Under the pieces are notes generated by a model, which worked only from the letters and a program-made list of their open reading frames with translations, did no database searches and was not told the origin of the DNA. Positions 23,500-56,050 of a DNA stretch of 64,000 bases are shown here, in pieces. The stretch is from Pseudomonadota bacterium (GTDB lineage Bacteria > Pseudomonadota > Alphaproteobacteria > Rhizobiales > Pleomorphomonadaceae): positions 1 through 64,000 of the forward strand of contig JAGSYV010000004.1 of the NCBI GenBank assembly GCA_018262505.1. The letters are read 5' to 3'. Every line of letters starts with the position of its first letter. Within the stretch, counting starts at the first letter, position 1. A program made the position numbers and the translations under genes.

Positions 23500-24929
23500 G
23501 TGCCGAACTCCATGAACATGGCGCGACCGCCGACCCCATTCGTTGCGCCAGTGCCATATCCATACACACCACCCGCGAGATACCAGCCGCCGGCAGCCCC
23601 CGCCTGACCGAATAGGCAAGTTCCGCTTGGCCCCCCGCCGTTACCGCCGCCCTCCTTGGCACCGCCGCCGCCGCTCGTGTAGTAGGTGACTCCGTCGATG
23701 ACGATGCTCGTAGTGCCCCCGGTTCCACCGGTGCTGTTCTTGTTGGCAACCACTCCGCCGCCTCCGCCAACAGCGACCGGATAGGTCTGAGTGTCGCTCA
23801 CGGCTGCAAAGAAGAAGCCGACACCACCGGCGCCACCACCGGTGCCCCAGACAGAGTTCCCTCCGCCGGAACCGCCCACGAGAATGCCAAAAATGAACTT
23901 GGTCCCTGCGGTTGGGACGTAGTTTCCAGATGCGCCGAAATCGCGGATAGCCTTGGGAACGGCTCCACCGAGGTTGAGGGCGCCAAGCGCGGCCACGATC
24001 GCGGAATGAACGCCCGCCGAATGAACCGGCAGTTCCTCGTCAGTGCCAGCGACCACAGTGGCTGCCGATGCCAGAACCAACTTAATCAGCCGGTCGGCCG
24101 AAAGATCAGTCTCAGCCGGCTCCGCGTCGCTGCCGGCAGCACCGTCAAGAGACAGGCCAGGGCCAACCTTCAGCTTGCGAACCGCTGGAACGAAACTTTC
24201 GAGCATGGCCGCGATTTGCTCGGTGGTCGAATAGGCGTCCAGGTCGAAGGCGTCGGAAAGCGTCTGCGCCACGGCCGCCCAATGCCGAGCCGAAAAGCCC
24301 GTGCCGACCGGCGTATTCGGCGCCGCGTTCGCGAGCTGATCGGCGAGCGCGGCGGCGGTGCCGGCGGCCGTAGCCGCGCCAGTGGCAGCTCCGGCAGCGA
24401 CCGTGGCCGTTCCAGAAGCGCTGACGGCAGTCGCGCGGGCCGTCTCGATCTCGGCGGCGGTTGGTCCAGCGACGGCCCCGCCCTCGCCGTTCGACACGTA
24501 AACGGCCCCCTCAGGCACGCTCGCGGCGTTGCCAGCGATAACGATTGACGACTCCTCGATGTCGTCGACCTTCTGCGACAGCTCGGCAACGCGCATAGCC
24601 GATCGATCCAGCGCCGCCGCATGCCCTGCCGCGTCATAGGTGTCGGTCGCGGTCGGGTCATAAACCTGCGTCATCGGCGTTTGCCGCACCATCGACACCG
24701 TGCCCGGTGTGGCAGGAAAGGCCGCAAGCGGAGCGATGGTCGCAACGCCTGCCGAGGAAAGCGTGACGGCGTAGTGCAGCCCGAGCGTCAGCGCCTGGCG
24801 CTCCCCCTCGTCAGGTACCAGGCTGACAATAAGCTGGGACCGCTCTTGCACCTGAATGCCGGTCGGGATTTCGGTCTCGACTCCTGTCCACGCTGCGGAG
24901 GCGCGGACAACGGTGGAAACAACGGTCAT
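23496..24929 (-). CDS. Tail fibre with glycine-rich receptor-binding tip
   Basis: A 477-residue fibre. Residues 1-110 look like the T7-type particle-binding N-terminal domain (TGIQVQERSQLIVSLVPDEG, then PMTQVYDPTATDTYDAAGHAAALDR). A long Ala/Thr-rich coiled-coil shaft follows (TATVAAGAATGAATAAGTAA). The last 120 residues are packed with Gly runs (VGGSGGGNS, AVGGGGG, TSGGGGA), as in polyglycine adhesin tips of some tailed phages. This tip probably sets host range. The ATG at 24929 overlaps the upstream stop by 4 bp. Confidence 0.8.
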   Translation of the reverse strand: MTVVSTVVRASAAWTGVETEIPTGIQVQERSQLIVSLVPDEGERQALTLGLHYAVTLSSAGVATIAPLAAFPATPGTVSMVRQTPMTQVYDPTATDTYDAAGHAAALDRSAMRVAELSQKVDDIEESSIVIAGNAASVPEGAVYVSNGEGGAVAGPTAAEIETARATAVSASGTATVAAGAATGAATAAGTAAALADQLANAAPNTPVGTGFSARHWAAVAQTLSDAFDLDAYSTTEQIAAMLESFVPAVRKLKVGPGLSLDGAAGSDAEPAETDLSADRLIKLVLASAATVVAGTDEELPVHSAGVHSAIVAALGALNLGGAVPKAIRDFGASGNYVPTAGTKFIFGILVGGSGGGNSVWGTGGGAGGVGFFFAAVSDTQTYPVAVGGGGGVVANKNSTGGTGGTTSIVIDGVTYYTSGGGGAKEGGGNGGGPSGTCLFGQAGAAGGWYLAGGVYGYGTGATNGVGGRAMFMEFGT

Positions 24930-27499
24930 CGAGCATCTCCGATCAGGGAAGGCATGCGGCGCGGTGTGGACTGGCCGGGCGCCCACCAGAAGCGCTGGCC
25001 GGCATCCTTGGCCGCCTGCTTCTCAAGGCGCTGAAAGCGCTCTGGCGCGCGCGGGTCGATCTGCAAAGCAAGCTGGTCGACGATCGCCCGCTGGAACGCG
25101 AGACGCGTCTGCCAGAGCGTCGACCCTGGCATGTAGCGGGACAGCACATAAAGGCCGTCGCCTGCGAAATGTGTCTCTTGTCCCTTGGCCCAAAGCTGGC
25201 TGTTCTTGATCAGCCAATCGCCCAGCACGGTTTCGACGGCGCCAGCCTGTGGCCCAACGATGGTCGTCGCCCAGCTGTTGCCGTAACGGGTTTGGTCGGC
25301 AAACAAGAAGTCGCCGAAGATACCCAAGCCGCCACCTTGTAGGATGGCGGCGCCGATCGTCTTCGGGTCGTCGGCCCGCAACGGATCGCGGCCGTTGGCG
25401 ATCTGCTTGAGCTGAAGGGCCATCAGCCCCATGGCCGACATCAGCGCGAAGCTGCCGGCGGCATGGCTGAGGCGCCGGCCGTCCCAACCGCGCGCAAAGG
25501 CCCGCATCATGTGCGAGGTGATGAAGGTCGCCGTGAACGACTTGTAGAGCGAGACCGCCCGGCGCGCCTCGCCGCCAAGCGTGCCCGGCCGGCTGTCGCC
25601 GAGCAACATGGCGCGGGTCAGTGTGTCACTCTCGATCACAGCGAAGGTCATTTCCGTGTCGACCATGCGGGCGATCGACGCGGCAACGCGGCGGGCGTTC
25701 TCGCTGCCGATCGCCGCCACATCCATATGGCGGATGAACTTCGCACCTGGTCGCGGCTCGAACGGCTTAGCCTCGCCGATCAGCTTCCAGTCGGCCTCGC
25801 CGATGCCATAGCGCTGGAGCGTGTCACGGAAGGCCGGCGACAGATCGCCCCACGTCTTATCTGCGTCACTGGCGATCTTCGCCTGAAACTCCATGCCGAA
25901 GGCGTTGCGAAGCGTGGCGGTCCAGCGCCGAAGGCCGGAGGCGCGAATGACGGCGCTCGACGTCTTCGCAGCGATGCCGCTGCGGATTGCCTCGCCCATG
26001 AAGCGATCGCCTGCCCGAACATCGCCGGCAATGCTGTCGGCGATGAAGCCATGCTGCAGGGCGTCGATCTCGGCGCCAGGACGCGCCATGTCGGCGGCAG
26101 CGCGGCTGAGCACCTTCAGCGCCGGCACGTCGTTGAAGCGCGCCGTCATGGTCAGCAACGCCGGGTCGGAGATGGACGAGATGATGGCCGATCCGAGCTG
26201 CGAGGAGACCAGCCACGAGCGCATATCGCTCATGGCATTCGCCGCGCCTTCATGCACCGGCCGATTGGCATCGCCGGTCACCACCTGGCTCCACAAAGCG
26301 TCGATCTGGTTTTGCCCAGACTTCACCGTGTCGCCGATCTTGAGGTTGCCTTTGACCGTCTTCACGAAGCCCTTGGCGTCAGCCATCGACCCTTCGGAAG
26401 CCAGCCGGCCGGGCTCTCGCTCAAACAGGCCGTCGATGAACCGCTTGAGCGCTACCGGGTTCGGCCCCAGCACTTCCAGCTTGGCGATATCGGAAGCCAT
26501 GCCCTCGATGTGATCGAGCATGGCCTGATAGACCGACTGGTGACCGCCGAACGCGTTGGCGTAAGTCATCCAGCTTTCGGCATCCTTGAACAGCAGCACG
26601 CGGGCGTCGGCGCGGCTGTTGGCCAGAGCCGGCCGGCCACGAACGGCGGCGCTCGGCCCGCCGTCGATCCCCTCGTTGACGATGCTGTCGAACACCTGGT
26701 CCAGCAGCTTGTCGAGCTTGCCGGGCGAAAGCGTTCGGCCCGTCGCGAAGCTGATCATGTTGTTCCGGTCGAGCAGCCTGTTGCGATAGAGAAATTCCTT
26801 CCACTGCTCACGGCCGGCCGTGCGCACCTTCATCGCGTCGTGGGTCGGGTTGGCAAGCCGCCAGTCCGCGCGGAAGGGGATGGCGCCACCAGCCTTGTTG
26901 AAGGCGATCCGAAGGTGCTCGGCCGTCTTTGTCCAGGCCTCGGCCACAGTGCGCGCCGTGGCATTGCCGGTCGCCAGGCCATAGAGTTCCCGCAGCACAT
27001 CGCCCTCGAAGGCGGTTTCCGCCTTGAAGCCCAGCATCTTCGGCCGCATGGCCTCGATTGCCCCGGCAAACAGGGTGTGCGCCTCGGCCCGAATGCGATG
27101 GCTGGCCGCCACCACGTTCTCAAAGGTCATGCCGATCTCGAAGGGATCGCGGACCAGCATGGCGCGGATGGCGGCGGCGAGCGGCAGTTTCAGAAAGGTC
27201 GGCGCCTTTCCCTCGGCCTTCAGCGCGCCAACCGTTTCCGTATAAGTCGTCACCCGCCGCAACACGTCGGCTTGAGCCTTGGCGGTGCCGAAGGCGATCT
27301 GAGCCTTTCGCGCCGCCTCGGCCGCCGCTTCGTCGGCCGTCTCGATCGCCGCTTTGCGTATGGCATCGCGCGCCGTGTCGCCAGCGGCCTTGAAGTTGGC
27401 CTCGGCTTCGTCGAGCCAGTCGAGCAGCACCTTGCCCTTTTCAGGATCGACAGCGCCGGATGTGATTTTGGCAGTGAAGCAGAAACGCGGAGAGACCAT
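24926..27499 (-). CDS. Large internal virion (ejection) protein
   Basis: An 857-residue protein of temperate podovirus type. It is mostly helical, with an early coiled coil (LDEAEANFKAAGDTARDAI) and a C-terminal hydrophobic segment (AGSFALMSAMGLMALQLKQI) followed by GGGLGIFGDFLFADQTRYG, a pattern of the domains found at the end of large phage polyvalent proteins. It is probably packaged in the head and ejected with DNA to help build the channel across the envelope. Coupled by 4-bp overlaps to both neighbours. Confidence 0.65.
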   Translation of the reverse strand: MVSPRFCFTAKITSGAVDPEKGKVLLDWLDEAEANFKAAGDTARDAIRKAAIETADEAAAEAARKAQIAFGTAKAQADVLRRVTTYTETVGALKAEGKAPTFLKLPLAAAIRAMLVRDPFEIGMTFENVVAASHRIRAEAHTLFAGAIEAMRPKMLGFKAETAFEGDVLRELYGLATGNATARTVAEAWTKTAEHLRIAFNKAGGAIPFRADWRLANPTHDAMKVRTAGREQWKEFLYRNRLLDRNNMISFATGRTLSPGKLDKLLDQVFDSIVNEGIDGGPSAAVRGRPALANSRADARVLLFKDAESWMTYANAFGGHQSVYQAMLDHIEGMASDIAKLEVLGPNPVALKRFIDGLFEREPGRLASEGSMADAKGFVKTVKGNLKIGDTVKSGQNQIDALWSQVVTGDANRPVHEGAANAMSDMRSWLVSSQLGSAIISSISDPALLTMTARFNDVPALKVLSRAAADMARPGAEIDALQHGFIADSIAGDVRAGDRFMGEAIRSGIAAKTSSAVIRASGLRRWTATLRNAFGMEFQAKIASDADKTWGDLSPAFRDTLQRYGIGEADWKLIGEAKPFEPRPGAKFIRHMDVAAIGSENARRVAASIARMVDTEMTFAVIESDTLTRAMLLGDSRPGTLGGEARRAVSLYKSFTATFITSHMMRAFARGWDGRRLSHAAGSFALMSAMGLMALQLKQIANGRDPLRADDPKTIGAAILQGGGLGIFGDFLFADQTRYGNSWATTIVGPQAGAVETVLGDWLIKNSQLWAKGQETHFAGDGLYVLSRYMPGSTLWQTRLAFQRAIVDQLALQIDPRAPERFQRLEKQAAKDAGQRFWWAPGQSTPRRMPSLIGDAR

Positions 27500-30400
27500 C
27501 AGCGCACCCCGTTCTTGATAAGGCAATCGGCGAATTCGGCCGCCACGGCCGCGTCGGCGTCGATCTCGTCGAGCAACTGACGGGCGGTCACCTTGCGCGT
27601 TGTGCCGTCTGGCGCGTCGAGTTCCAGTTCAAGGTCGCCAACCTCGTCGACCAGGCGCCGGAGATCTTCCTGCGCGGCGCGGCCGGCCTCGACCTGTTCG
27701 GTAAGGTGCGGAGAAACCTCGCGCCGGGCGAGCGCGGTTTCTTCTTGCGAAGGAGTTGACTTTCTGGACTTTTCTGGTCCAGTGCTTACATCAACCTCGT
27801 GAGAGGCATTCCCCATGTCATCAGTGACGTTCTGCAACTGGGACCGGCGGCCGGCAGTGCTGCTGAAACCGTCATATGAGGCCTTCGCCGTTCTTGCCCC
27901 CGGTAAGGATTGGTCAAAAGTCGACGAGGCGGACGTGTTCCACACCGCTGGCGTTTTGCCGGAAGAGCGCTGGCGTGAGGTGTTCGAGCCGAAGTTCGGA
28001 CCGCTCGACACGTCAAGGTTTGTCCAGTCAGAGCCTGCCTCGCGCGCCGCTGCCGAATAAAGCCTATCCATCTTGTCTTCGAGCGCGAGGCGCTCGACCG
28101 CGTCTTCGGACAGTCGCCAGCGTTCGTAGAGTTCATGGCCGCCGGCCTTTTTCGCCGAGAGCATGTGCGGCTCCCAAAGCTGGACTTCGCCCACAGTGCC
28201 ATCCGGAAAACGCACCAGCACCTTGCGGTCAACATAGCCGCCGCTGGCAACTGCCCAACCTTCGTCCAGCACCTCAAAGCGTCGCGCGAGCTCCTCGACA
28301 ACCAAGTCGGCTTTAGCGGGTGTGTCGACGACAAAGCCACCTCGCACGACATCGGTAAGCTCGGCCGTAGATTGATAGCCCTTGCGGGTCATCTTCTGCT
28401 CAGCCGTCGCGCGATCCTTGATCTTTGCGGCCTTGTATTCGACGCCCACCGCATTGGCGATTTCCTGACCGGCTGCGCTGAGCTCCTCCTGTCGCATCGG
28501 CGCGACAGCGTAGAGCGCATCCATATCCCGCTCCGGCACGCCCTCGAAGAAAGCGGCTTCGCCAGGGGCGCGGCCGGGAGACCGAACAGGAATAACGGCA
28601 ATGTCTTCGATGTCGGCGCCTGCGATCTTCGCTGCTGCGAAAGCCGCCCTCGGCGTCACCTCGAAGCCAAAGAGATCGGGACCATCGCCCGCCCGGAGCG
28701 ATGCGCGGAACAGGCTCTGGAGCCGCTCGGCGACTTTCTCTCGGCCGGCCGCAACCGTCAGGCCATCGTCATGGAAGAACAGCCGGACTGCATCGGCGAC
28801 GCTCTCGCGCACGTCCCCGTGCTCAATGTCGGCCTGGTCGAGAAGAGCGGCAACCGGCTCGCCGGTTTTCCGCGCGCGCTCGACCAGGCGATAGGCTTCC
28901 ACCACGTCGCGGCCGGGATCGTCGAAGGAGAGGCGCCCATCGATGGCGGCCTGACGCACGCGGGCCGCAAGCGGCGCCGTGTCGCTCATGGCGCCAATGA
29001 TTGCTTTCGACGTCGGGTCGATCGTCTCGTAAAGGCTCTTCACCACGTCGGGCGCATCGAAGCCGCGCTGCACCAGGGCGGCCGTCAGGCGATCGGCTCC
29101 CGCCTGCGACAGATAGCCATCGGCCGTCACCAGATCGCCCATCTCTTCCGGTGTCGCCATGCGCTGAAGCGCCTTGCGGGCAAAGGCGGCGTTGCGTGCC
29201 TGGCCGGCTTCGCCACCAGCGAAGGCGTCGAGCACCTCGGGCGACAACACCTTGGCGTCAACGGCCGCGCGCTCGGACGCTGAAAGCCGCGCCGTTGCCG
29301 TGCGGTTCGCCTCGACGGTGAAAGCCTGCCGCTCGGCAGGCGATAGCTCAGTCTCACGGACGCGCACTAGGACCGGCTGTTTCATGTCCTTGGCCTGGCC
29401 GAAGCCAGCGTCGATCAGTTCCTTTCGATAGGCCTCGGCCCGATCTGGCACCCGCGCGAACGCCTCACGGATGCCAAGCACCCGACCGTTACCGCTTTCG
29501 ACAACGGCATCAGGGCCGACGACCGGCGCGCCCTCGCGCGCGGTCGGCGCGTCCATCAGAAGACGCGGATTGAGGTTGGCGGAGATCTCGGCGATCTGCG
29601 CCTGGCTCGCCGGCCGCGAGCGGTCGCGCGGTTGAAGCTCGGGCGGGAATAGTGGGTTGGCGGTGCCCGAAGTGTCGTGGCTGGTGATGAGCTTGTCCGC
29701 CTCGATCACCTGCCAGCGCGTCTTGAGGCTCTGGCCGTCACCCCAGACGATTTCGCCGCCCCGGAGATTCGGCAAGTCAGCGACCGACGAAAGCGGCTGG
29801 CCGCTGTCGATCGCCGCCCGTGCCATCGCCTCGCCATCGAGGGCGGCGACCGCCGATCGCGCGTCGGGCATACCGGCCGCCGGTAGGTCGCGCGCTTCCT
29901 GGAAGCGAGCAACGGCGGCGACGTCTTGAGGCGACAGGTCTGGCTTCGGGGTGGCCGGCGCTTGCGGTGTTTCCGCGCGGGCTTCGAAGCGATGCCGAAG
30001 CCCGCCGGCCGCGCCACCGATCAGGCCGGCAAGACCGATCGAAAATGCGGCGTCGCCAAGCGAATATTCGCCGCCAAGCTCGGCGCGGTCATGCTGAAGG
30101 ATGCCCTGCTCAAGGGCTTCCGTGCCGGCGTTGATCGCCGCTTCACGGCCGACACTGGCCACCAGGCCGACGCCCTTGACGGTCGGGATCGCCATGGATG
30201 CAACGTTGATCGGGTCGGCGACGTTGGCGGCAAGCCAACCAGACCAGGCCAACGCGTTGGCACTCAGGCCGTAAGTCCGCGAAGAGGCGTCGGACAGGCG
30301 ACGCTCATGGTCTCTCCAGAGTTCGGATGCGCGGGCGCCGACATCGATGTGGGGTTCGATCGCCTTTCGCTGATCTTCCGGCAGTGTAGCAATGGCGCGG

Positions 30401-30693
30401 GCAAGTTTGGTCGTCGTAGCCACGTCCATCTCACCAGGACGCCAGAGACCGGATGCGTCGCTCCCCATTGTCTGCGCGGCCCAACCGAGCAACTCTCGGC
30501 CGGTTGCCTTGCGGAAGGCCGACGTCAGCTCGTTCGCGGCCGTATCCTTGAAGCCGGCGTAAGTGGTCGCCCAATCGACCGTGCTCCAGCCGGCGCCGAC
30601 AAAAGCATCCCAGCCGGTCAGCGGGGCTTCGGCCGGCCGTACGGCGTCGCGGCGGGCGATGGTCTCGGACCAAGCTGCATCCCAGGAGGTCAT
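27499..30693 (-). CDS. Polyvalent virion protein with ParB-like and RelA/SpoT-like domains
   Basis: A 1064-residue protein. Residues about 355-480 match the DdrB-type ParB-like domain (QAQIAEISANLNPRLL, then VVESGNGRVLGIREAF and VRVRETELSPAERQAF). Residues about 740-865 have the order of conserved elements of a RelA/SpoT nucleotidyltransferase fold: KIKDRATAEQKM, LTDVVRGGFVVDTP, GYVDRKVLVRFPDGTVGEVQL and GGHELYERWR. The N-terminal 230 residues are helical and hydrophobic around residue 150-230. Such multi-domain 'polyvalent' proteins enter the cell with phage DNA and act on host defences or metabolism. Whether the domain is catalytic is unknown. It is in the ejection-protein cluster, overlapping both neighbours by 1-4 bp. 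Confidence 0.7.
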   Translation of the reverse strand: MTSWDAAWSETIARRDAVRPAEAPLTGWDAFVGAGWSTVDWATTYAGFKDTAANELTSAFRKATGRELLGWAAQTMGSDASGLWRPGEMDVATTTKLARAIATLPEDQRKAIEPHIDVGARASELWRDHERRLSDASSRTYGLSANALAWSGWLAANVADPINVASMAIPTVKGVGLVASVGREAAINAGTEALEQGILQHDRAELGGEYSLGDAAFSIGLAGLIGGAAGGLRHRFEARAETPQAPATPKPDLSPQDVAAVARFQEARDLPAAGMPDARSAVAALDGEAMARAAIDSGQPLSSVADLPNLRGGEIVWGDGQSLKTRWQVIEADKLITSHDTSGTANPLFPPELQPRDRSRPASQAQIAEISANLNPRLLMDAPTAREGAPVVGPDAVVESGNGRVLGIREAFARVPDRAEAYRKELIDAGFGQAKDMKQPVLVRVRETELSPAERQAFTVEANRTATARLSASERAAVDAKVLSPEVLDAFAGGEAGQARNAAFARKALQRMATPEEMGDLVTADGYLSQAGADRLTAALVQRGFDAPDVVKSLYETIDPTSKAIIGAMSDTAPLAARVRQAAIDGRLSFDDPGRDVVEAYRLVERARKTGEPVAALLDQADIEHGDVRESVADAVRLFFHDDGLTVAAGREKVAERLQSLFRASLRAGDGPDLFGFEVTPRAAFAAAKIAGADIEDIAVIPVRSPGRAPGEAAFFEGVPERDMDALYAVAPMRQEELSAAGQEIANAVGVEYKAAKIKDRATAEQKMTRKGYQSTAELTDVVRGGFVVDTPAKADLVVEELARRFEVLDEGWAVASGGYVDRKVLVRFPDGTVGEVQLWEPHMLSAKKAGGHELYERWRLSEDAVERLALEDKMDRLYSAAAREAGSDWTNLDVSSGPNFGSNTSRQRSSGKTPAVWNTSASSTFDQSLPGARTAKASYDGFSSTAGRRSQLQNVTDDMGNASHEVDVSTGPEKSRKSTPSQEETALARREVSPHLTEQVEAGRAAQEDLRRLVDEVGDLELELDAPDGTTRKVTARQLLDEIDADAAVAAEFADCLIKNGVR

Positions 30694-33422
30694 TGGCTGC
30701 CAAGCCCCCGTCGCTGGAGCGGAGGAAGATCGGAAGGCGTTACCGGCGGGGGCTGGTTGCCGAGACCACCCGGTGCGCTTCGAACGAAACGCCCCCGCAA
30801 ATCATTGAGCGCGGAGAAATCCAGCACGAGTGACCCACCGCTCCGCAGCGCGGTCGTCACTGGCCTGAGTTCGCCGCCTTGCGGCAGATAGACGCCGTAG
30901 ACCGCACCGCCGAGCGACGTCGGTCGCAACACGGCATGATGGCGAAGAAACGCTGCGTCGTGGCGGTAACCACCAACGGCGAAGGCACCGCCGGCCGCCT
31001 TCAGGTCATCGTCGGTCAGGCTGTCGAACAGACCGGAGAAGCGCGAAACCGTCATGCCCTGTGGCGCCGGCACGTCGGCGCCGTTGATCCGGGTGAAACT
31101 GCCCGTCACCTTCTCGACGGCGGCCTGATAGGCGTCGGCGTCATGCTCGCCGAACAACGTCTCGCCCACCGCGCGATCGGCGACATAAACAGCCGTCGCC
31201 GCGTCGGCGATCGTCGCCTGTACGGTCGGCGGATAGGTGTCCGGTGCAAGGCGGCCAAGCGTGTCGGCGAGACCCTCCTTGATCGTGTCGGCCTTGGCTT
31301 TGACGTCCGGTAGCGCCATCAGCTCCTGGCCGCGGAAAATCTGCTCGGCGATCGCCGGCCGATCTTTGCCGACCAGGCCGGCGACAATCATCATGTGCGC
31401 CTCGGCGCCATTCGCCATTTGCTCGACGGCGCCGGTGAAAGCGCGGTCATCCATCGCGCGGGCCATGCCGGTCACAAATTCGGCCTTGCCGCCATTGCCG
31501 AGCTTCGACCAGTGATCTTTCACGGCTCCAAGCTCGGCCGCCTGGAACGGCTTCACCGGTGCGCCAAGGTAGGACGCGGCGAGGCCCGCCTGTTCACCTC
31601 GACGGGCGAAGGCCGTCTGGAACTGTGGCGACGACGGCGCGGCATCATAGGCAAGCGGCGTGGTCGCGACGCGCCCGGCGCGCACGGCCACCGATACCGG
31701 ATCACTGTCGCGCTTCTGGTTGATCTCCGACGACACGGCCCGCATGGCATCGAGCCGCATCTGCTCAACCGGCATCACCACCGGTGCCGCCGCAAGTCGC
31801 CCCTCCTCGGCCGATAGCGCCTGTTCGAGATCGCTCGGCGGCATCCGCCAGGCGCCCGCCACGAAGGGCGCGATCTGCTCGGCGCGGGCAAGCTCGCGGA
31901 GCTTCAAGGCGCTTGAGCTATCACCGGCTGCGGCGGCCGTCGCCAGTGTCTGCTTGGTGGAGGCGATCAACGCCGGGTCGGCGGCATAGCCAGAGCCAAA
32001 GAGCTTGGTGATATCGCCGGCGTCGTCGCGGGAAATGGCTGCGAGGTCGAGCAGCGCCTTCCGTTCATCGGCCTTGTCGGACTTCAGCTTGTCGAACCAA
32101 GCACTTTCAGCGCGGAAACGTCCCGTCGCCGATAGGGTCGAGCCCATGGGCTGCCCCAAGCGACCGAAGACGCTGCGGACATAATCCGCCGTCTCGCTGA
32201 CCGGAATGACGGACGCGAATTCCTCGGCGGTGAACGCCGGCCCAAAGCGGCGCACCGCTTCGTCACGCCAGGCCGTCGCACGAGGGAGCTTGTCGTTGCC
32301 GGGCCCGGCGTTATAGGCCGCGAGCGCGACGGCCACGTTACCGTCGTAGCGATCGAGCAGCCCCTGAAAATAGGTGAGCCCGATCCGCCGATTAAGGTCG
32401 GGATCACTGAGAAGGCGCGCCTTCAGCCCTTGATCGTCGAGACCGGCGATATCATCGAGCCCCATCTGCCGGGCAACGCCGCGCGCCGTATCGGGCATGA
32501 GTTGAGCGACGCCAAGCGCACCCATGGGGCTTTCAGCGCTTGCCTTACCGCCGCTTTCTTGTGGGATCACGCCACGGTCGAAAATCCAGGTCGCGGTGCC
32601 GCCATCGCGCACCCGGCCAATCGCGCCCAAACTCGACCGATCGTCGCCTGCACGAATGCCGGCGAGCGTCTGTTCCTCAAGCGCCGCATCGGCGCTCGAA
32701 AGGTAGCGCTGCCGGTCGAATGGATCGAGCGCACCAAAGTTGGCCGGATCGGACAGGAGGGCCTTGGCTCTATTCGGATCGGTGCGGATCAACTCCAGCA
32801 CCGCGCCCTGTTCGGTCGTGGCGCGGAAGGTGAGCTTGCGCTGTTGGGCCTGGACGGGCGTCAACAGGCCGGTGTTGGCGAGCCCATCAATGGCCTTGTC
32901 GCGATCGCCCATGATCGCCTGGCGTTCGGCATCGGAGCCTGCGGCGCCATAGCGGCGGAAATAGCTCTGGTCGGCAACGTCGAGGTTGGCGACCGCTGTC
33001 GAGGCTTCATTGCTGCGGGCAGAGCCATGCACCGCGCCACGGGCGGCGATCGACTGCCGCTCGAAATCAAAGCCCAGCGCTTCCCGCTCGCGCGGGTCGC
33101 TGACCATGTCGAGCGCTTCCTGTCGGAGCTGTGCCTCGGCGCTGGCAAATTCGCCGGGAGCGTTCTTGAAATCGGGGCTCTCGGTCCATTTGGTCTGAAG
33201 CTCGTCGAGCCCCTTCAGATAATGCGCCCGAGCGCCGATGCCTTCCGAGCCGTCGCGAAGCTGCTTGTTATAGTCGGCCACGCGGCCGACTGCCTCGCCC
33301 AAGCCGAAAACAGCCTGTCCCAACGAACCAAGGCCCCGCCCGATAGCATCGGCCGGCTGAATGGTTGGCATCTGACCCGGGCCGGGCGGGGCGACTTGCG
33401 ACTGGTAGACGGGTGCCGGCAT
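30690..33422 (-). CDS. Internal virion protein with lytic transglycosylase domain
   Basis: A 910-residue ejection protein. A soluble lytic transglycosylase domain sits at about residues 278-390: RGVIPQESGGKAS with catalytic Glu289, MGALGVAQLMPDTARG, and GNVAVALAAYNAGPG. It would locally open peptidoglycan for genome entry, as T7 gp16 does. The rest is helical. The N-terminal VYQSQVAPPGPGQMPTIQ region is Pro/Gln-rich. Stop overlaps the next gene by 4 bp. Confidence 0.85.
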   Translation of the reverse strand: MPAPVYQSQVAPPGPGQMPTIQPADAIGRGLGSLGQAVFGLGEAVGRVADYNKQLRDGSEGIGARAHYLKGLDELQTKWTESPDFKNAPGEFASAEAQLRQEALDMVSDPREREALGFDFERQSIAARGAVHGSARSNEASTAVANLDVADQSYFRRYGAAGSDAERQAIMGDRDKAIDGLANTGLLTPVQAQQRKLTFRATTEQGAVLELIRTDPNRAKALLSDPANFGALDPFDRQRYLSSADAALEEQTLAGIRAGDDRSSLGAIGRVRDGGTATWIFDRGVIPQESGGKASAESPMGALGVAQLMPDTARGVARQMGLDDIAGLDDQGLKARLLSDPDLNRRIGLTYFQGLLDRYDGNVAVALAAYNAGPGNDKLPRATAWRDEAVRRFGPAFTAEEFASVIPVSETADYVRSVFGRLGQPMGSTLSATGRFRAESAWFDKLKSDKADERKALLDLAAISRDDAGDITKLFGSGYAADPALIASTKQTLATAAAAGDSSSALKLRELARAEQIAPFVAGAWRMPPSDLEQALSAEEGRLAAAPVVMPVEQMRLDAMRAVSSEINQKRDSDPVSVAVRAGRVATTPLAYDAAPSSPQFQTAFARRGEQAGLAASYLGAPVKPFQAAELGAVKDHWSKLGNGGKAEFVTGMARAMDDRAFTGAVEQMANGAEAHMMIVAGLVGKDRPAIAEQIFRGQELMALPDVKAKADTIKEGLADTLGRLAPDTYPPTVQATIADAATAVYVADRAVGETLFGEHDADAYQAAVEKVTGSFTRINGADVPAPQGMTVSRFSGLFDSLTDDDLKAAGGAFAVGGYRHDAAFLRHHAVLRPTSLGGAVYGVYLPQGGELRPVTTALRSGGSLVLDFSALNDLRGRFVRSAPGGLGNQPPPVTPSDLPPLQRRGLGSQ

Positions 33423-33423
33423 A

Positions 33424-33987
33424 TCACGTAATCCCGAAAGGACTGCTGGTGTCGAAATAGCCGTCGCCGTAAGCCGCGCCTGGCAGTCTCATCGCACCGC
33501 CGGTCGCCTTGCCGGCGGACGGCGTCGCATGCAGGGATTGCCACTGAAACGCCTGGGTGCCGGCGTTGAGCATGGTGGTCGCAGCGCCGAAGATGCCGGA
33601 AAACATCGCTTGCTTGGCTTGGCGTTTGTAGTTGGCCTCTTCGACGCGGTAACCGGTCGCATCGCGTACGGCGCCGTAGCGGGTCAAGAGCGCGTCGACC
33701 TCACCGGCGGCGGCAGAATTGGCGGCGAGCACCACCGGCGAGCCCACGGTGGGGTCAAGACCACTCGACGCGAAATAGCTCTGCTGTCCACCGAGTACGC
33801 CCGCAACGTCGCGGCGGATTTCCTGTTCCTTGTAAGCGCCCTGCGCCAACGCCAAGTCGGAGTTCTGCCGCGCCATTTGCGCCTGCACCTTGGCCGCCTT
33901 GGACTGCTCGACGCCGGTCATGATCTGGCCGGCGCCGGAGAGAACACCGCCGCCGATCATCAGGGCGGTAACGGGATCGACGCACAT
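33424..33987 (-). CDS. Internal virion protein (T7 gp14-like)
   Basis: A 187-residue protein opening MCVDPVTALMIGGGVLSGAG with an N-terminal hydrophobic helix, then a long helical region rich in Gln, Ala and Lys (SKAAKVQAQMARQNSDLALAQ) and a Gly-rich tail. Small ejection proteins with this start and position (between tail nozzle and large ejection proteins) are common in T7-like and BPP-1-like podoviruses. ATGA overlap with the nozzle gene. Confidence 0.7.
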   Translation of the reverse strand: MCVDPVTALMIGGGVLSGAGQIMTGVEQSKAAKVQAQMARQNSDLALAQGAYKEQEIRRDVAGVLGGQQSYFASSGLDPTVGSPVVLAANSAAAGEVDALLTRYGAVRDATGYRVEEANYKRQAKQAMFSGIFGAATTMLNAGTQAFQWQSLHATPSAGKATGGAMRLPGAAYGDGYFDTSSPFGIT

Positions 33988-36182
33988 CAGCCGCCCTCCA
34001 TGTGAACCGTGAGGTCAGGCGAAAGACCAATCAGGGTGAACGGCAGGCAGCCGTCGCAAGTCAGCTCGATCGCCAGTTCCTCGCCCTCGGGCGCCTCGGC
34101 GGTCACCCAGACGCCACCGGTCTTGAGCGCCACGGATTTGTTCGGCTCGCCTGCCCAAGGAACAGTGATCGGCTCGGCCGGCCCGCCGTTGATCGACACG
34201 GCGCCGCCTGCGCTCTCGTACATCTCGACGTAGACGTGGGCCGCCTGCTTGCTCTCGCCCTTGGTGCTGCCCCGCTGGGTCATCATCTCGAAAGGTAGCG
34301 TCTTCGCCCTTGCGACGATTGGCAGACCAACAACGACATGCGAGGCGGGCCGCGTCAGTGCGATCTTGCCGCCGGCCACGGTCGGCCGTTCCTTGCGTTC
34401 ACCGCCGTCCGCGAACACAACAACCGCCTGTCCTTCCAGGTGGTCGAGGCCGGAAAGCTCGGTCACCGGCGCGCCCTGATACTCCAGGCCGCTATCGACG
34501 AACCAGGCACCGGCGGCCCTGAGATCGTCGGGGTCCTCGGCGTCGAAGAAGATTTGCAGGATTTCCAGATAGCGCCGCGTCGCGCCCGCGATCTGACGGC
34601 GGACGATGAACCACAGCTCATGCACCGTCGTGTCGGCCGACCGGATGGCCGCCATATCCTCGACGAAGCCGCCCGCGAATATCTGCCGCTGCCAGCCAAC
34701 CACCTTTTCGCTCGGCATCCAGGTCAAGGTGCCGAGCGTGCCATTGGCAAGCCGCACCCAGACGGTGCGATGCGGGTCGCGCTGATAGGCAAAGCCCTCG
34801 GCGCCGGGCTTGAGGATATGGCCGGCGTAGACGGAGGGCTCGACCGTGTTGAGCTTTTCCGTCAACCGGTCGAGTTCGGTGAAGTGTATCCGCCGCCGGC
34901 TCGATCCGATGAACAGCACGCCGCCGTCGACCATCAGCGGGACGTGCCAGGCCGAGCCCTCCGAACCATCAGGCAACGCGCGAATCTTGCTCTGGTCGCT
35001 CAAGGGATCGGTCGACGACGAGCCGCGTATCTGCCACTCGCCGTCCGCCGTTCCGGCCACGACGCCACCGGCCGGCACCGCCCACTGAATGTCGACGAGG
35101 GAGCCGTCGGGCGAGGCGAGCCGACCGGACAGGGAAGACGCGGCCGTGTCGTCGATCTGGAACGAGAAATAGTCGCCGGCATAGGTCAGCCACCACTCAT
35201 CGCCGCGCGACCAGAACAGCCGCTGATCGACCTTGCGGATGCTGTCGGGCCATCCACGCACATCCGACCAGGCCGCCTCGAACCAGCGATAGGTTGGCGA
35301 GGTGAAAAGACTGTCCGGAACAGGGGAATAGGCCGTCACCTTGGCAACGGTCTCCGAGACCACCTCGGTAATCCGGACGTGGCATTGACCGTTGTGGAGA
35401 TATCTCCAGCGCGCCTTGCCATTGCCGGACGTCACCTCCCCCTCGGTGTGGGTCGGCGCATTGGCGCCAGAGTTCACCGGGCCATTGACGCACATGTAGA
35501 CATAGCCACCGAAGCGACGTTGAGCACCGGTCGGCACGTTTTCTTCCAACGCCAACCAGGTCGGCACGCTATCGAGGGTCGGCTCGTCGATCCGCCAGAG
35601 CGAGCCGACGTGTCCAGCCTTGAAGGTCGCTTTGCTCGCCGTGACGGTGAAGGACGAGTCTGCCCGCGCGGAACAAGCGAGGGTCCATGCCTTGTCGATG
35701 TTCTGAAGCCGATAGGGGCCATAGCTCTGTTCGTAGCCCGCAAGGCTCCAGTCGGTGGGACCGTTGCGGACAATCTGCCGGGGCGACAATCCCTTGCAGC
35801 CAAGAAACACCACATCGACGCTTTGCGCGTAGCGGATGTTTGCAAGATCGGCCTCACCGTAGGGAAAGCCGGCCAGCGTGTACGGCGCGCCATCGGCAAG
35901 CAGATAGCCGGTCAACCTGGCAACCCGCATCGTCCCGGCGTTGATGACAAGCACGGCCTGGTCGTCGTTGCCGGCCTTGAACGGGATGAGCAAGCCCTTC
36001 TGGCTCTGGTCGATCAGGGCCTCGGCGAAGCGCGTTCCCGGCCGGCGGGTGATGCCGCGTTGGGCGACGCCGACGAAGTTTTCGATGCGGGCAAGACCCG
36101 TCTGCGATTTGTCGAGATCGTAGGCGGCCCGTAGTAGCGGCGTGATCTCGCCACCGGCGAAAGAGATCTTGTCGACGATCAT
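33987..36182 (-). CDS. Tail nozzle protein (T7 gp12 / tail tubular protein B-like)
   Basis: A 731-residue protein. The opening KISFAGGEITPLLRAAYDLDKSQTGLARIENFVGVAQRG and the TRRPGTRFAEAL segment are typical of podovirus tail nozzle proteins, as are VDQRLFWSRGDEWWLTYAGDYFSF and the large beta-rich body. It closes the short tail tube. The ATG at 36182 overlaps the gp11-like gene stop (ATGA); a longer frame to 36323 only reads through that gene. Confidence 0.83.
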   Translation of the reverse strand: MIVDKISFAGGEITPLLRAAYDLDKSQTGLARIENFVGVAQRGITRRPGTRFAEALIDQSQKGLLIPFKAGNDDQAVLVINAGTMRVARLTGYLLADGAPYTLAGFPYGEADLANIRYAQSVDVVFLGCKGLSPRQIVRNGPTDWSLAGYEQSYGPYRLQNIDKAWTLACSARADSSFTVTASKATFKAGHVGSLWRIDEPTLDSVPTWLALEENVPTGAQRRFGGYVYMCVNGPVNSGANAPTHTEGEVTSGNGKARWRYLHNGQCHVRITEVVSETVAKVTAYSPVPDSLFTSPTYRWFEAAWSDVRGWPDSIRKVDQRLFWSRGDEWWLTYAGDYFSFQIDDTAASSLSGRLASPDGSLVDIQWAVPAGGVVAGTADGEWQIRGSSSTDPLSDQSKIRALPDGSEGSAWHVPLMVDGGVLFIGSSRRRIHFTELDRLTEKLNTVEPSVYAGHILKPGAEGFAYQRDPHRTVWVRLANGTLGTLTWMPSEKVVGWQRQIFAGGFVEDMAAIRSADTTVHELWFIVRRQIAGATRRYLEILQIFFDAEDPDDLRAAGAWFVDSGLEYQGAPVTELSGLDHLEGQAVVVFADGGERKERPTVAGGKIALTRPASHVVVGLPIVARAKTLPFEMMTQRGSTKGESKQAAHVYVEMYESAGGAVSINGGPAEPITVPWAGEPNKSVALKTGGVWVTAEAPEGEELAIELTCDGCLPFTLIGLSPDLTVHMEGG

Positions 36183-36787
36183 CGACGCCTCGCGGAAATC
36201 CAGGAGGTGGTGCGGCTGACCTGGGAGGTGGAGCGCTCGCGGGCGTCGTTGCGCTTGGCTTCCGGAAGCATTTCGCCGGCCACCTGGTGCGCGCGGTTGG
36301 CGGCCGTGCTCGACCGGGTGCATTGCGGTGCGCAGGCCTCGGCGAGTTGCTGCACAAAGATAAGTGTGAATTCAGCATTCCAGCGAATTGGCTCGGTCAC
36401 CCGTCGCGTGAATAGAACGAGCGGCGCCTCGGCAACCGTGTCGAGGTAGCGGACGAGTGGAGCGTCGGCGGAGCCAGCCGCAGAGACTGCCCACTCGTCC
36501 GCTTCGAGCCCGAGAACCGAACGGACGGCGAGGCAGTCTTCCGGCAGCAGATAGCGGCGGGTGAAAGGCTGTTCCGGCGCCTCTGGCGATGCCGCGAGCG
36601 TCGCTTGCGCCGAAGCGAAATTCCAATCGGTCTTCTTGAGCAAGGCATCCCGGAGCGTTCCGAAATGCCGCTTCACTACCCTCGCCGCCGTTCGCGCCTC
36701 GTCGAAGGAACTGAGCGCTGTCACCCCGATCAGGGACAACGCCGCATTGGCTGCATCGAGCTCGGTCGCGATCGGCGGCAGGGCCAT
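36179..36787 (-). CDS. Tail tube/adaptor protein (T7 gp11-like)
   Basis: A 202-residue protein: AANAALSLIGVTALSSFDEA at the N-terminus, RDALLKKTDWNFASAQATLA, then RRYLLPEDCLAVRSVLG, the set of motifs in gp11-type adaptor proteins that link portal to nozzle. The Arg-rich, disordered C-terminus (NDARERSTSQVSRTTSWISARRR) is unusual but overlaps the next gene by 4 bp as expected. Confidence 0.8.
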   Translation of the reverse strand: MALPPIATELDAANAALSLIGVTALSSFDEARTAARVVKRHFGTLRDALLKKTDWNFASAQATLAASPEAPEQPFTRRYLLPEDCLAVRSVLGLEADEWAVSAAGSADAPLVRYLDTVAEAPLVLFTRRVTEPIRWNAEFTLIFVQQLAEACAPQCTRSSTAANRAHQVAGEMLPEAKRNDARERSTSQVSRTTSWISARRR

Positions 36788-55976: not shown

Positions 55977-55992
55977 TGGAGGCCACGGAGGG
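55977..55992. other. attR core within tRNA-Cys 3' end
   Basis: The same 16 bp as at 17015-17030, here being the CCA end, acceptor strand and first T-arm bases of tRNA-Cys. The tRNA therefore stays functional after integration. Confidence 0.8.
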
Positions 55993-56050
55993 AATCGAAC
56001 CCCCGTACACGGATTTGCAATCCGCTGCGTAACCACTCCGCCACGTGGCC
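55977..56050 (-). tRNA. tRNA-Cys (GCA)
   Basis: A 74-nt tRNA with encoded CCA. The 7-bp acceptor stem GGCCACG/CGTGGCC, anticodon loop with GCA flanked by T and A, T-loop GGTTCGATTCC and D-loop with GTGGTTA are all present. It is the integration site of the prophage and is transcribed towards it. Confidence 0.95.

What the first reader, a model, noticed from the sequence alone, without database searches (positions are those of the whole stretch)
27499..30693. RelA/SpoT-like nucleotidyltransferase domain inside a virion polyvalent protein
In a 1064-residue protein in the ejection-protein cluster, residues about 740-865 show the element order of RelA/SpoT synthetase folds: a basic KIKDRATAEQKM helix, LTDVVRGGFVV with the conserved Asp, GYVDRKVLVRF, EVQL and GHELYERW. 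A ParB-like DdrB domain lies upstream. If delivered with the DNA, an alarmone or nucleotide-modifying activity could act on the host at the first moments of infection, as an anti-defence or takeover factor. Family-level knowledge: polyvalent phage proteins carry ParB-like and other enzyme domains; activity here is inference.
Basis: partly seen in the sequence, partly recalled or inferred. Interest (0 to 1): 0.72.

Follow-up and report, generated by a model that had tools for sequence, protein, structure and literature searches.

The report
Alarmone-synthetase domain in phage ejection protein
A bacterial virus that sits dormant in its host's chromosome appears to carry, built into one of the proteins it is expected to shoot into the next cell, an enzyme of the kind that makes bacterial stress-signal nucleotides.

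Summary
Residues 720-891 of the 1064-aa protein (28021-28536, minus strand) have the RelA/SpoT synthetase fold: Tas1 is the best PDB sequence match (E 2.4e-5; profile 4e-12), and the AlphaFold model superposes on Tas1 (Z 15.8) and a small alarmone synthetase (Z 16.3). Seven motif residues are invariant in 47 of 47 non-redundant phage homologues, which form one clade beside a Tas1-like protein; Pfam RelA_SpoT matches none of 27 carriers scanned. The gene lies in the ejection-protein operon of a podovirus-like prophage, overlapping both neighbours. Elsewhere the same domain sits on other internal-virion backbones. That grafting is the best genomic evidence for delivery; packaging, injection and activity are untested. 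RelA/SpoT domains in polyvalent phage proteins were described in 2017, and MuF (p)ppApp toxins later, so this is a new variant of a known kind. Unplanned finding: the slot protein's only cysteine lies near its C-terminus and the next ejection protein's near its N-terminus (11 of 11 podophages counted, one after re-reading a start), suggesting a linked pair.

The parts
27499..30693 (-). gene of the 1064-aa ejection-slot polyvalent protein (P0001)
   Evidence: ATGA overlap with the upstream gene, TGATG overlap with the downstream gene
29356..29739 (-). DdrB-like ParB domain, residues 319-446
   Evidence: PF18763 E 2.1e-31
28021..28536 (-). RelA/SpoT-fold synthetase (SYNTH) domain, residues 720-891
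   Evidence: Tas1 match; AlphaFold model and PDB matches; invariant motifs
27829..28020 (-). Ser/Thr-rich linker, predicted disordered, holding TAGRRSQ (residues 946-952)
   Evidence: pLDDT below 50 over model residues 181-252; AGRx[SA]Q in 18 of 50 unique carriers not cut at the 3' end
27502..27711 (-). C-terminal tail with the protein's only cysteine (C1057)
24926..27499 (-). next ejection protein, phrog_684 virion structural protein; only cysteine at residue 7
   Evidence: phrog_684 E 4e-147
30690..33422 (-). internal virion protein with SLT lytic transglycosylase domain; no cysteine
   Evidence: PF01464 E 4.7e-17; phrog_992 E 9.7e-15
33424..33987 (-). internal virion protein, gp14-like
   Evidence: phrog_418 E 2.3e-30; Pfam T7_gp14 only below its cut-off, E 0.0014
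33987..36323 (-). tail protein (phrog_376)
   Evidence: E 7.7e-136

Best explanation
The gene encodes an ejection protein of a temperate podovirus-like phage, made late, packed in the head and shot into the next cell with the DNA. Its SYNTH domain is an active nucleotide 3'-pyrophosphokinase that moves pyrophosphate from ATP to the 3'-OH of a purine nucleotide, producing a burst of alarmone ((p)ppGpp- or (p)ppApp-type) in the first minutes, before phage genes are read, so as to reset host transcription, replication or nucleotide pools. Shown: fold (model), invariant catalytic residues, purifying selection, place in the ejection operon, the same domain on several internal-virion backbones. Inferred: packaging, entry into the cytoplasm, activity, acceptor nucleotide, benefit to the phage.
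For: Tas1 and SaEAS are the closest solved relatives by sequence or structure. K44, K52, D66, R69, Y105, E121 and Q123 (model numbering; add 715 for the protein) are invariant in 47 of 47. dN/dS 0.148. Order tail protein - gp14-like - SLT - SYNTH protein - phrog_684. The same domain in proteins matching phrog_342, internal virion protein with endolysin domain (L016, L120), and on a phrog_24166/phrog_992 backbone (L131). Dose: 4-10 copies at 100,000 per minute give 0.66-1.66 mM per minute in 1 fL, at 1,000 per minute 0.007-0.017 mM; the higher rate is that reported for SaEAS (passages of PMC12691689), the copy range and volume are my assumptions.
Against: No biochemistry. Pfam and NCBIfam miss it; hhalign against three closely related RSH proteins was not significant, although the motifs aligned in order. 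No immunity gene was seen, whereas MuF toxins with this activity carry two; a very fast synthetase could harm the phage's own infection. A standalone phage RelA-like protein did not lower cell fitness when expressed (PMC10865808, passages), so phage synthetases need not be strong effectors. Full-length model poor (mean pLDDT 48). No virion proteomics.
Confidence: 0.58

Rival explanations
1. Active pyrophosphokinase with another acceptor: tRNA 3'-CCA (as in some toxSAS) or a host defence signal nucleotide that it inactivates.
For: The acceptor motif, Tyr-x-Asp-[Arg/His/Gln] in 47 of 47 and then Lys in 43, differs from the GxN of adenosine and SxH of guanosine enzymes (motif classes from passages of PMC12226406). 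CapRel is among the structural matches, Z 13.2.
Against: The closest relatives are free-nucleotide synthetases; 7 of 9 outside relatives, mostly standalone EAS-like proteins, share the Asp. Blocking tRNA would hurt the phage too (inference).
Confidence: 0.17
2. The domain acts in the producing cell late in infection or at lysis (host shut-off or toxin against competitors), not by injection.
For: Late-gene location; MuF polymorphic toxins are phage-borne precedents (PMC12226406 and PMC11699363, passages).
Against: The domain occurs on different internal virion backbones; no immunity gene fits beside it, as both neighbours overlap, and in the own genome HD_4 hydrolase was found only in the chromosomal RSH. 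Other carriers were not checked for immunity genes.
Confidence: 0.13
3. Catalytically silent module kept for nucleotide binding or as a structural spacer.
For: A fold does not prove function; the acceptor motif is unusual; one outside relative (L117) has lost motif residues.
Against: All seven synthetase-motif residues are invariant in 47 of 47, at identities to the window's domain from 26% to 76%.
Confidence: 0.1

Closest known systems
Tas1/Apk1, type VI secretion (p)ppApp synthetase (6ox6)
   Same: Closest sequence in the PDB; Z 15.8, 2.8 A, 162 residues, 27% identity; Arg three residues after the catalytic Asp in a Tas1-like relative, which is also the sister in the tree
   Different: Acceptor motif Tyr-x-Asp-x-Lys instead of GxN; phage virion-type carrier; no immunity gene found
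Exported alarmone synthetases (SaEAS 8vx3, VpEAS; PMC12691689)
   Same: That they are EAS is my inference
   Different: Those use Sec and other secretion routes; in the section read the phage carrier class named is SPP1/MuF. Trp after the Glu-x-Gln-x motif: 46 of 47 here, 0 of 10 outside
MuF polymorphic toxins of temperate phages, Apk2 (PMC12226406; also PMC11699363)
   Same: Phage-encoded synthetase-fold effector on a virion protein
   Different: MuF head protein carrier, C-terminal toxin, immunity genes; here an ejection protein with a tail after the domain and no MuF domain
Polyvalent phage proteins with RelA/SpoT and DdrB-ParB domains (PMC5512222)
   Same: Same idea and same ParB partner; predicted alarmone-like response on entry
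   Different: In the passages read: Spirochaete and epsilonproteobacterial (pro)phages and MuF fusions. This clade is missed by Pfam RelA_SpoT and sits in podovirus-type ejection proteins
RelAP1, standalone RelA-like protein of a P1-like phage (PMC10865808, passages)
   Same: Phage-encoded predicted ppGpp synthetase
   Different: Similar to RelA/SpoT N-terminal domains, no virion carrier described in the passages; did not lower fitness when expressed
Uncultured phage proteins in BFVD, e.g. A0A6J5Q8J2 named RelA/SpoT
   Same: Four hits of 981-1129 residues contain the fold; names include RelA/SpoT, DdrB-like and ART-PolyVal-like
   Different: No described function or carrier analysis seen

Membership tests
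RelA/SpoT-fold synthetase (SYNTH) superfamily | Synthetase fold | tested here: met
   AlphaFold domain pLDDT mostly above 90; 5dec Z 16.3, 6ox6 Z 15.8
RelA/SpoT-fold synthetase (SYNTH) superfamily | Catalytic Lys, Asp, Tyr, Glu-x-Gln motif residues | tested here: met
   K, K, D, Y, E, Q each 47 of 47
Canonical RSH (p)ppGpp synthetases | Pfam RelA_SpoT match | tested here: not met
   No hit for the window; PF04607 not among the families for any of 27 carriers, two of them cut short
Canonical RSH (p)ppGpp synthetases | Syn3 SxH guanosine motif | tested here: not met
   D at the Ser position 47 of 47, K at the His position 43 of 47
Apk (p)ppApp synthetases | Syn3 GxN motif | tested here: not met
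   D at the Gly position 47 of 47; K at the Asn position 43 of 47, N in 1
Apk (p)ppApp synthetases | Sequence kinship with Tas1 | tested here: met
Apk (p)ppApp synthetases | Makes (p)ppApp from ATP | not testable with these tools
   needs purified protein
Apk2 MuF polymorphic toxin | MuF N-terminal domain | tested here: not met
   no MuF family in the Pfam scans
Apk2 MuF polymorphic toxin | Linked hydrolase-type immunity gene | tested here: not met
   HD_4 profile in the own genome: one match, the chromosomal RSH on contig C90; other carriers not checked
Apk2 MuF polymorphic toxin | Linked IapK-type binding immunity | not testable with these tools
   no profile at hand; both neighbouring genes overlap this one
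Polyvalent protein | Several enzymatic domains next to virion genes | tested here: met
   ParB plus SYNTH in the ejection operon
Podophage ejection protein | Position between the transglycosylase protein and the last ejection protein, shared C-terminal cysteine tail | tested here: met
Podophage ejection protein | Found in virion and ejected | not testable with these tools
   needs virion proteomics and an infection assay

The most novel reading that the evidence does not exclude
The gene upstream of phrog_684 in these podophages is an exchangeable warhead slot. Its protein carries one C-terminal cysteine that pairs with the single N-terminal cysteine of the next ejection protein; the effector (here an alarmone synthetase) rides into the cell on the ejectosome and is freed by reduction in the cytoplasm. 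A whole clade of phages thus injects alarmone synthetase with the genome.
Probability: 0.2. Interest if true: 0.85.

Novelty: new variant of a known kind. Interest (0 to 1): 0.6.

Why it matters
If right, some phages reprogram or stress the host with a delivered nucleotide-signal enzyme before any phage gene is read, and the effect could be tested with one residue change. It also points to a clade of RelA/SpoT-fold enzymes that Pfam RelA_SpoT misses, and to a conserved terminal-cysteine pattern in podophage ejection proteins that bears on how ejectosomes hold or release cargo.

Tried and rejected
tblastn against INPHARED with five domain queries (the window's and four relatives') gave no record at limits of E 1 or 0.01; the whole protein matched 37 records, through its ParB and middle part only. 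hhalign of the family (A3) against three RSH proteins of the host's family: probability 0.1, not significant; that alignment is very narrow.

TAGRxSQ as a general effector-linker motif: a viral-contig scan for one coding of TTAGRxSQ gave 93 stretches. In all 93 (80 parsed, 13) the motif followed a Ser/Thr-rich linker of a long frame in four, all of this family. Rejected as a general motif, for this DNA pattern. It is present in 18 of 50 unique carriers and does not dock on the domain in the model.

Full-length structure model: mean pLDDT 48, only the SYNTH domain confident. Hydrophobicity scan of carriers: mostly nothing at the threshold used. PDB search with phrog_684 and with the phiV10 slot protein: no hit. 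A phmmer of a Tas1-like slice against the window protein printed no hit. My early idea that L009/L010/L016 carry the domain inside a phrog_684 protein (note) was wrong; the scan gives phrog_342 and phrog_16310. In checking I also dropped the idea that Tyr-x-Asp-x-Lys is unique to the phage clade.

A polymorphic toxin with immunity: no hydrolase found by one profile in the own genome, and no gene fits beside it, but immunity genes elsewhere are not excluded.

Literature searches for a virion-delivered alarmone synthetase; two searches gave no paper, the others listed MuF toxins, polyvalent proteins, exported synthetases and a standalone phage RelA (read in passages). For terminal cysteines in ejection proteins: no relevant title in the listings. 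PMC10083569 was not held. Bartoli 2023 was seen only in a reference list and not looked up. Supplementary files could not be read here, so whether these proteins are among the 1,369 EAS sequences of PMC12691689 is unknown.

Full report
What is there. The ORF at 27499-30693 (-) is real, 1064 aa. It overlaps the gene before it by ATGA and the gene after it by TGATG. It lies in the ejection and tail operon of a phage region: endolysin, tail fibre, phrog_684 virion protein, this protein, SLT transglycosylase protein, gp14-like protein, phrog_376 and phrog_394 tail proteins, major head protein, head-tail adaptor, terminase (weak, E 2.4e-5), primases, anti-repressor. That it is a temperate podovirus is inference from gene content and from the related region on a 210-kb chromosomal contig (L015); no integrase turned up among the ORFs scanned. 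An IMG/VR contig of 36,070 bases matches the window at 100% over the 15,712 bases held.

Domains. ParB-like DdrB domain at 319-446. Residues 720-891 are the RelA/SpoT-like domain: Tas1 E 2.4e-5 by single sequence, 4.1e-12 by a 3-sequence profile, 1.1e-16 by a 13-sequence full-length profile. The AlphaFold model on 13 homologues has pLDDT mostly above 90 for the domain and below 50 for the linker. Foldseek: SaEAS 5e-8, Tas1 4e-7, SAS1 1e-6. VIA-align: SAS1 Z 16.3 (3.4 A, 167 residues), Tas1 Z 15.8 (2.8 A, 162), SaEAS 15.5, CapRel 13.2, RelSeq 10.0; other nucleotidyltransferases such as DNA polymerase X score 7.7 or less in the rows shown. Pfam RelA_SpoT, NCBIfam and a narrow RSH profile do not detect it.

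Family. One viral-contig scan with the 13-row alignment gave 54 loci out of 65 pattern matches, partly redundant. A scan of 84,980 species genomes gave 6 relatives out of 40 pattern matches. Genome samples: 2 of 150 relatives, 4 of 385 of the class, 10 of 398 of the phylum, each count including the window's own genome; the other class hits are one phage-type fragment and two shorter proteins, the phylum hits mostly standalone proteins of about 258 aa (EAS-like by my reading) and one Tas1-like protein. Of 70 domains extracted at 45 bits or more, 56 remained after a 95% cut: 47 phage-type and 9 others; cut or partial hits (L115, L167, L178-L180) were left out. In the 47, K44, K52, D66, R69, Y105, E121 and Q123 (model numbering, protein number = +715) are invariant, as is D107; W125 46 of 47, K109 43 of 47. 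Acceptor region: Tyr-x-Asp-Arg-Lys in 35, His or Gln in place of Arg in most others. Outside: Tas1-like L176 Tyr-x-Gly-x-Asn, RSH Tyr-x-Ser-x-His, seven of nine others Tyr-x-Asp, two of these with Lys, so the Lys alone is not special; Trp 125 is absent from all 10. L117 has lost several motif residues. FastTree with one RSH outgroup puts the 47 in one clade (support 0.962), sister to L176 (0.994); few outgroups were used.

Delivery. The carriers are not one protein. L120 (1712 aa) matches phrog_342 at 31-537 and phrog_16310 at 1434-1644, with the domain at 1173-1414 between. L016 (Aminobacter ciceronei, 1537 aa) matches the same two families; the stretch shown lies just after the domain at 994-1240, its other stretch was not printed. 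phrog_342 is named internal virion protein with endolysin domain; its likeness to T7 gp16 is recalled. In L131 (same protein as the Mesorhizobium locus L019) the domain is C-terminal on a phrog_24166/phrog_992 backbone; in L018 (Pseudovibrio) it is present twice in a 2308-aa protein with LPD38; in L130 in a 2544-aa ParB and LPD38 protein. Most other carriers are in the slot before phrog_684. Grafting onto several internal-virion backbones is the strongest sequence argument for injection. T7 gp16-C is drawn as a hub in the host cytoplasm (PMC8954989, passages and the figures section). For this phage it remains inference. That internal virion genes are unusually divergent and mosaic is already said for other podoviruses (PMC10386132, passages).

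Slot and cysteines. I fetched 12 of the 108 INPHARED records that match phrog_684, a choice of mine that includes close relatives. The protein before phrog_684 differs: of seven scanned, SLT in BcepC6B, ParB plus a sub-threshold SLT in an Acinetobacter phage, ParB in vB_EcoM_APEC, a sub-threshold MafB match in VP5, nothing in phiV10, SI2 and Shamal. In 11 of the 12 this protein's only cysteine lies 3-10 residues from the C-terminus. The twelfth, ZCVPP1, was left out because a tiny gene lies there; its 615-aa protein further upstream has its only cysteine 4 from the end, and its structural protein has its only cysteine at residue 20 as annotated. Among 70 other CDS of seven loci, 1 has a cysteine in the last nine residues. 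In 10 of the 11 the phrog_684 protein has its only cysteine at residue 5 or 6; in APEC an upstream start would include one. Of 50 unique carriers not cut at the 3' end, 42 have a cysteine in the last nine residues, against 0.9% expected per protein from their cysteine content; in 32 of the 42 it is the only one. Of 51 carrier loci with at least 1.2 kb downstream, 42 have both the cysteine tail and phrog_684, 8 have neither (with repeats: five distinct kinds), 1 (L123) has the tail only, 0 have phrog_684 only; 5 more had too little sequence. These loci are related and partly identical, so they are not independent. A cysteine falls near the phrog_684 start in 42 of 42, but for L164 the printed stretch is not clearly the start.

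How it may work. Late expression, packaging, ejection with the DNA, then pyrophosphate transfer to a purine nucleotide. At rates like those of SaEAS (95,000-190,000 per minute; passages of PMC12691689) 4-10 copies would make about 0.66-1.66 mM per minute in 1 fL at 100,000 per minute; a 100-fold slower enzyme 0.007-0.017 mM. The lack of a visible immunity gene fits an enzyme that meets a cytoplasm only after injection, but it is also a puzzle, because MuF relatives carry immunity genes (passages of PMC12226406 and PMC11699363). Acceptor identity is open.

Known or new. Polyvalent proteins with RelA/SpoT domains and the idea of an alarmone-like response on entry were published in 2017 (PMC5512222, passages). 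A P1-like phage has a standalone RelA-like protein (PMC10865808, passages). BFVD holds uncultured phage proteins of similar size with the fold, some named RelA/SpoT or DdrB-like. I found no description of this clade missed by Pfam, of its place on several podophage ejection backbones, or of the terminal-cysteine pattern. Hence a new variant of a known kind.

Noticed in passing
window 27523-27525 (C1057) and 24926-27499 (C7 of phrog_684): Adjacent ejection proteins carry one terminal cysteine each, C-terminal in the first and N-terminal in the second; seen in 11 of 11 podophages counted (one after re-reading a start) and closely linked in carrier loci. Possible disulfide tether.
   Followed up: partly
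gene slot before phrog_684 in L193-L196, L198-L200: The slot protein's middle part differs between phages (SLT, ParB, weak MafB match, SYNTH) while the C-terminal cysteine tail is kept: looks like an exchangeable effector slot.
   Followed up: partly
window 27829-28020; L012, L013, L014, L083, L104: Disordered Ser/Thr-rich linker with TAGRxSQ after the domain, found in part of this family; role unknown.
   Followed up: partly
L018:3835-10758: 2308-aa Pseudovibrio protein with two synthetase domains, each followed by an AGRPSQ linker, plus LPD38 and a sub-threshold metallopeptidase match.
   Followed up: no
window 55977-56050: tRNA-Cys near the far end of the phage region, a possible attachment site; no integrase among the ORFs scanned.
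   Followed up: no
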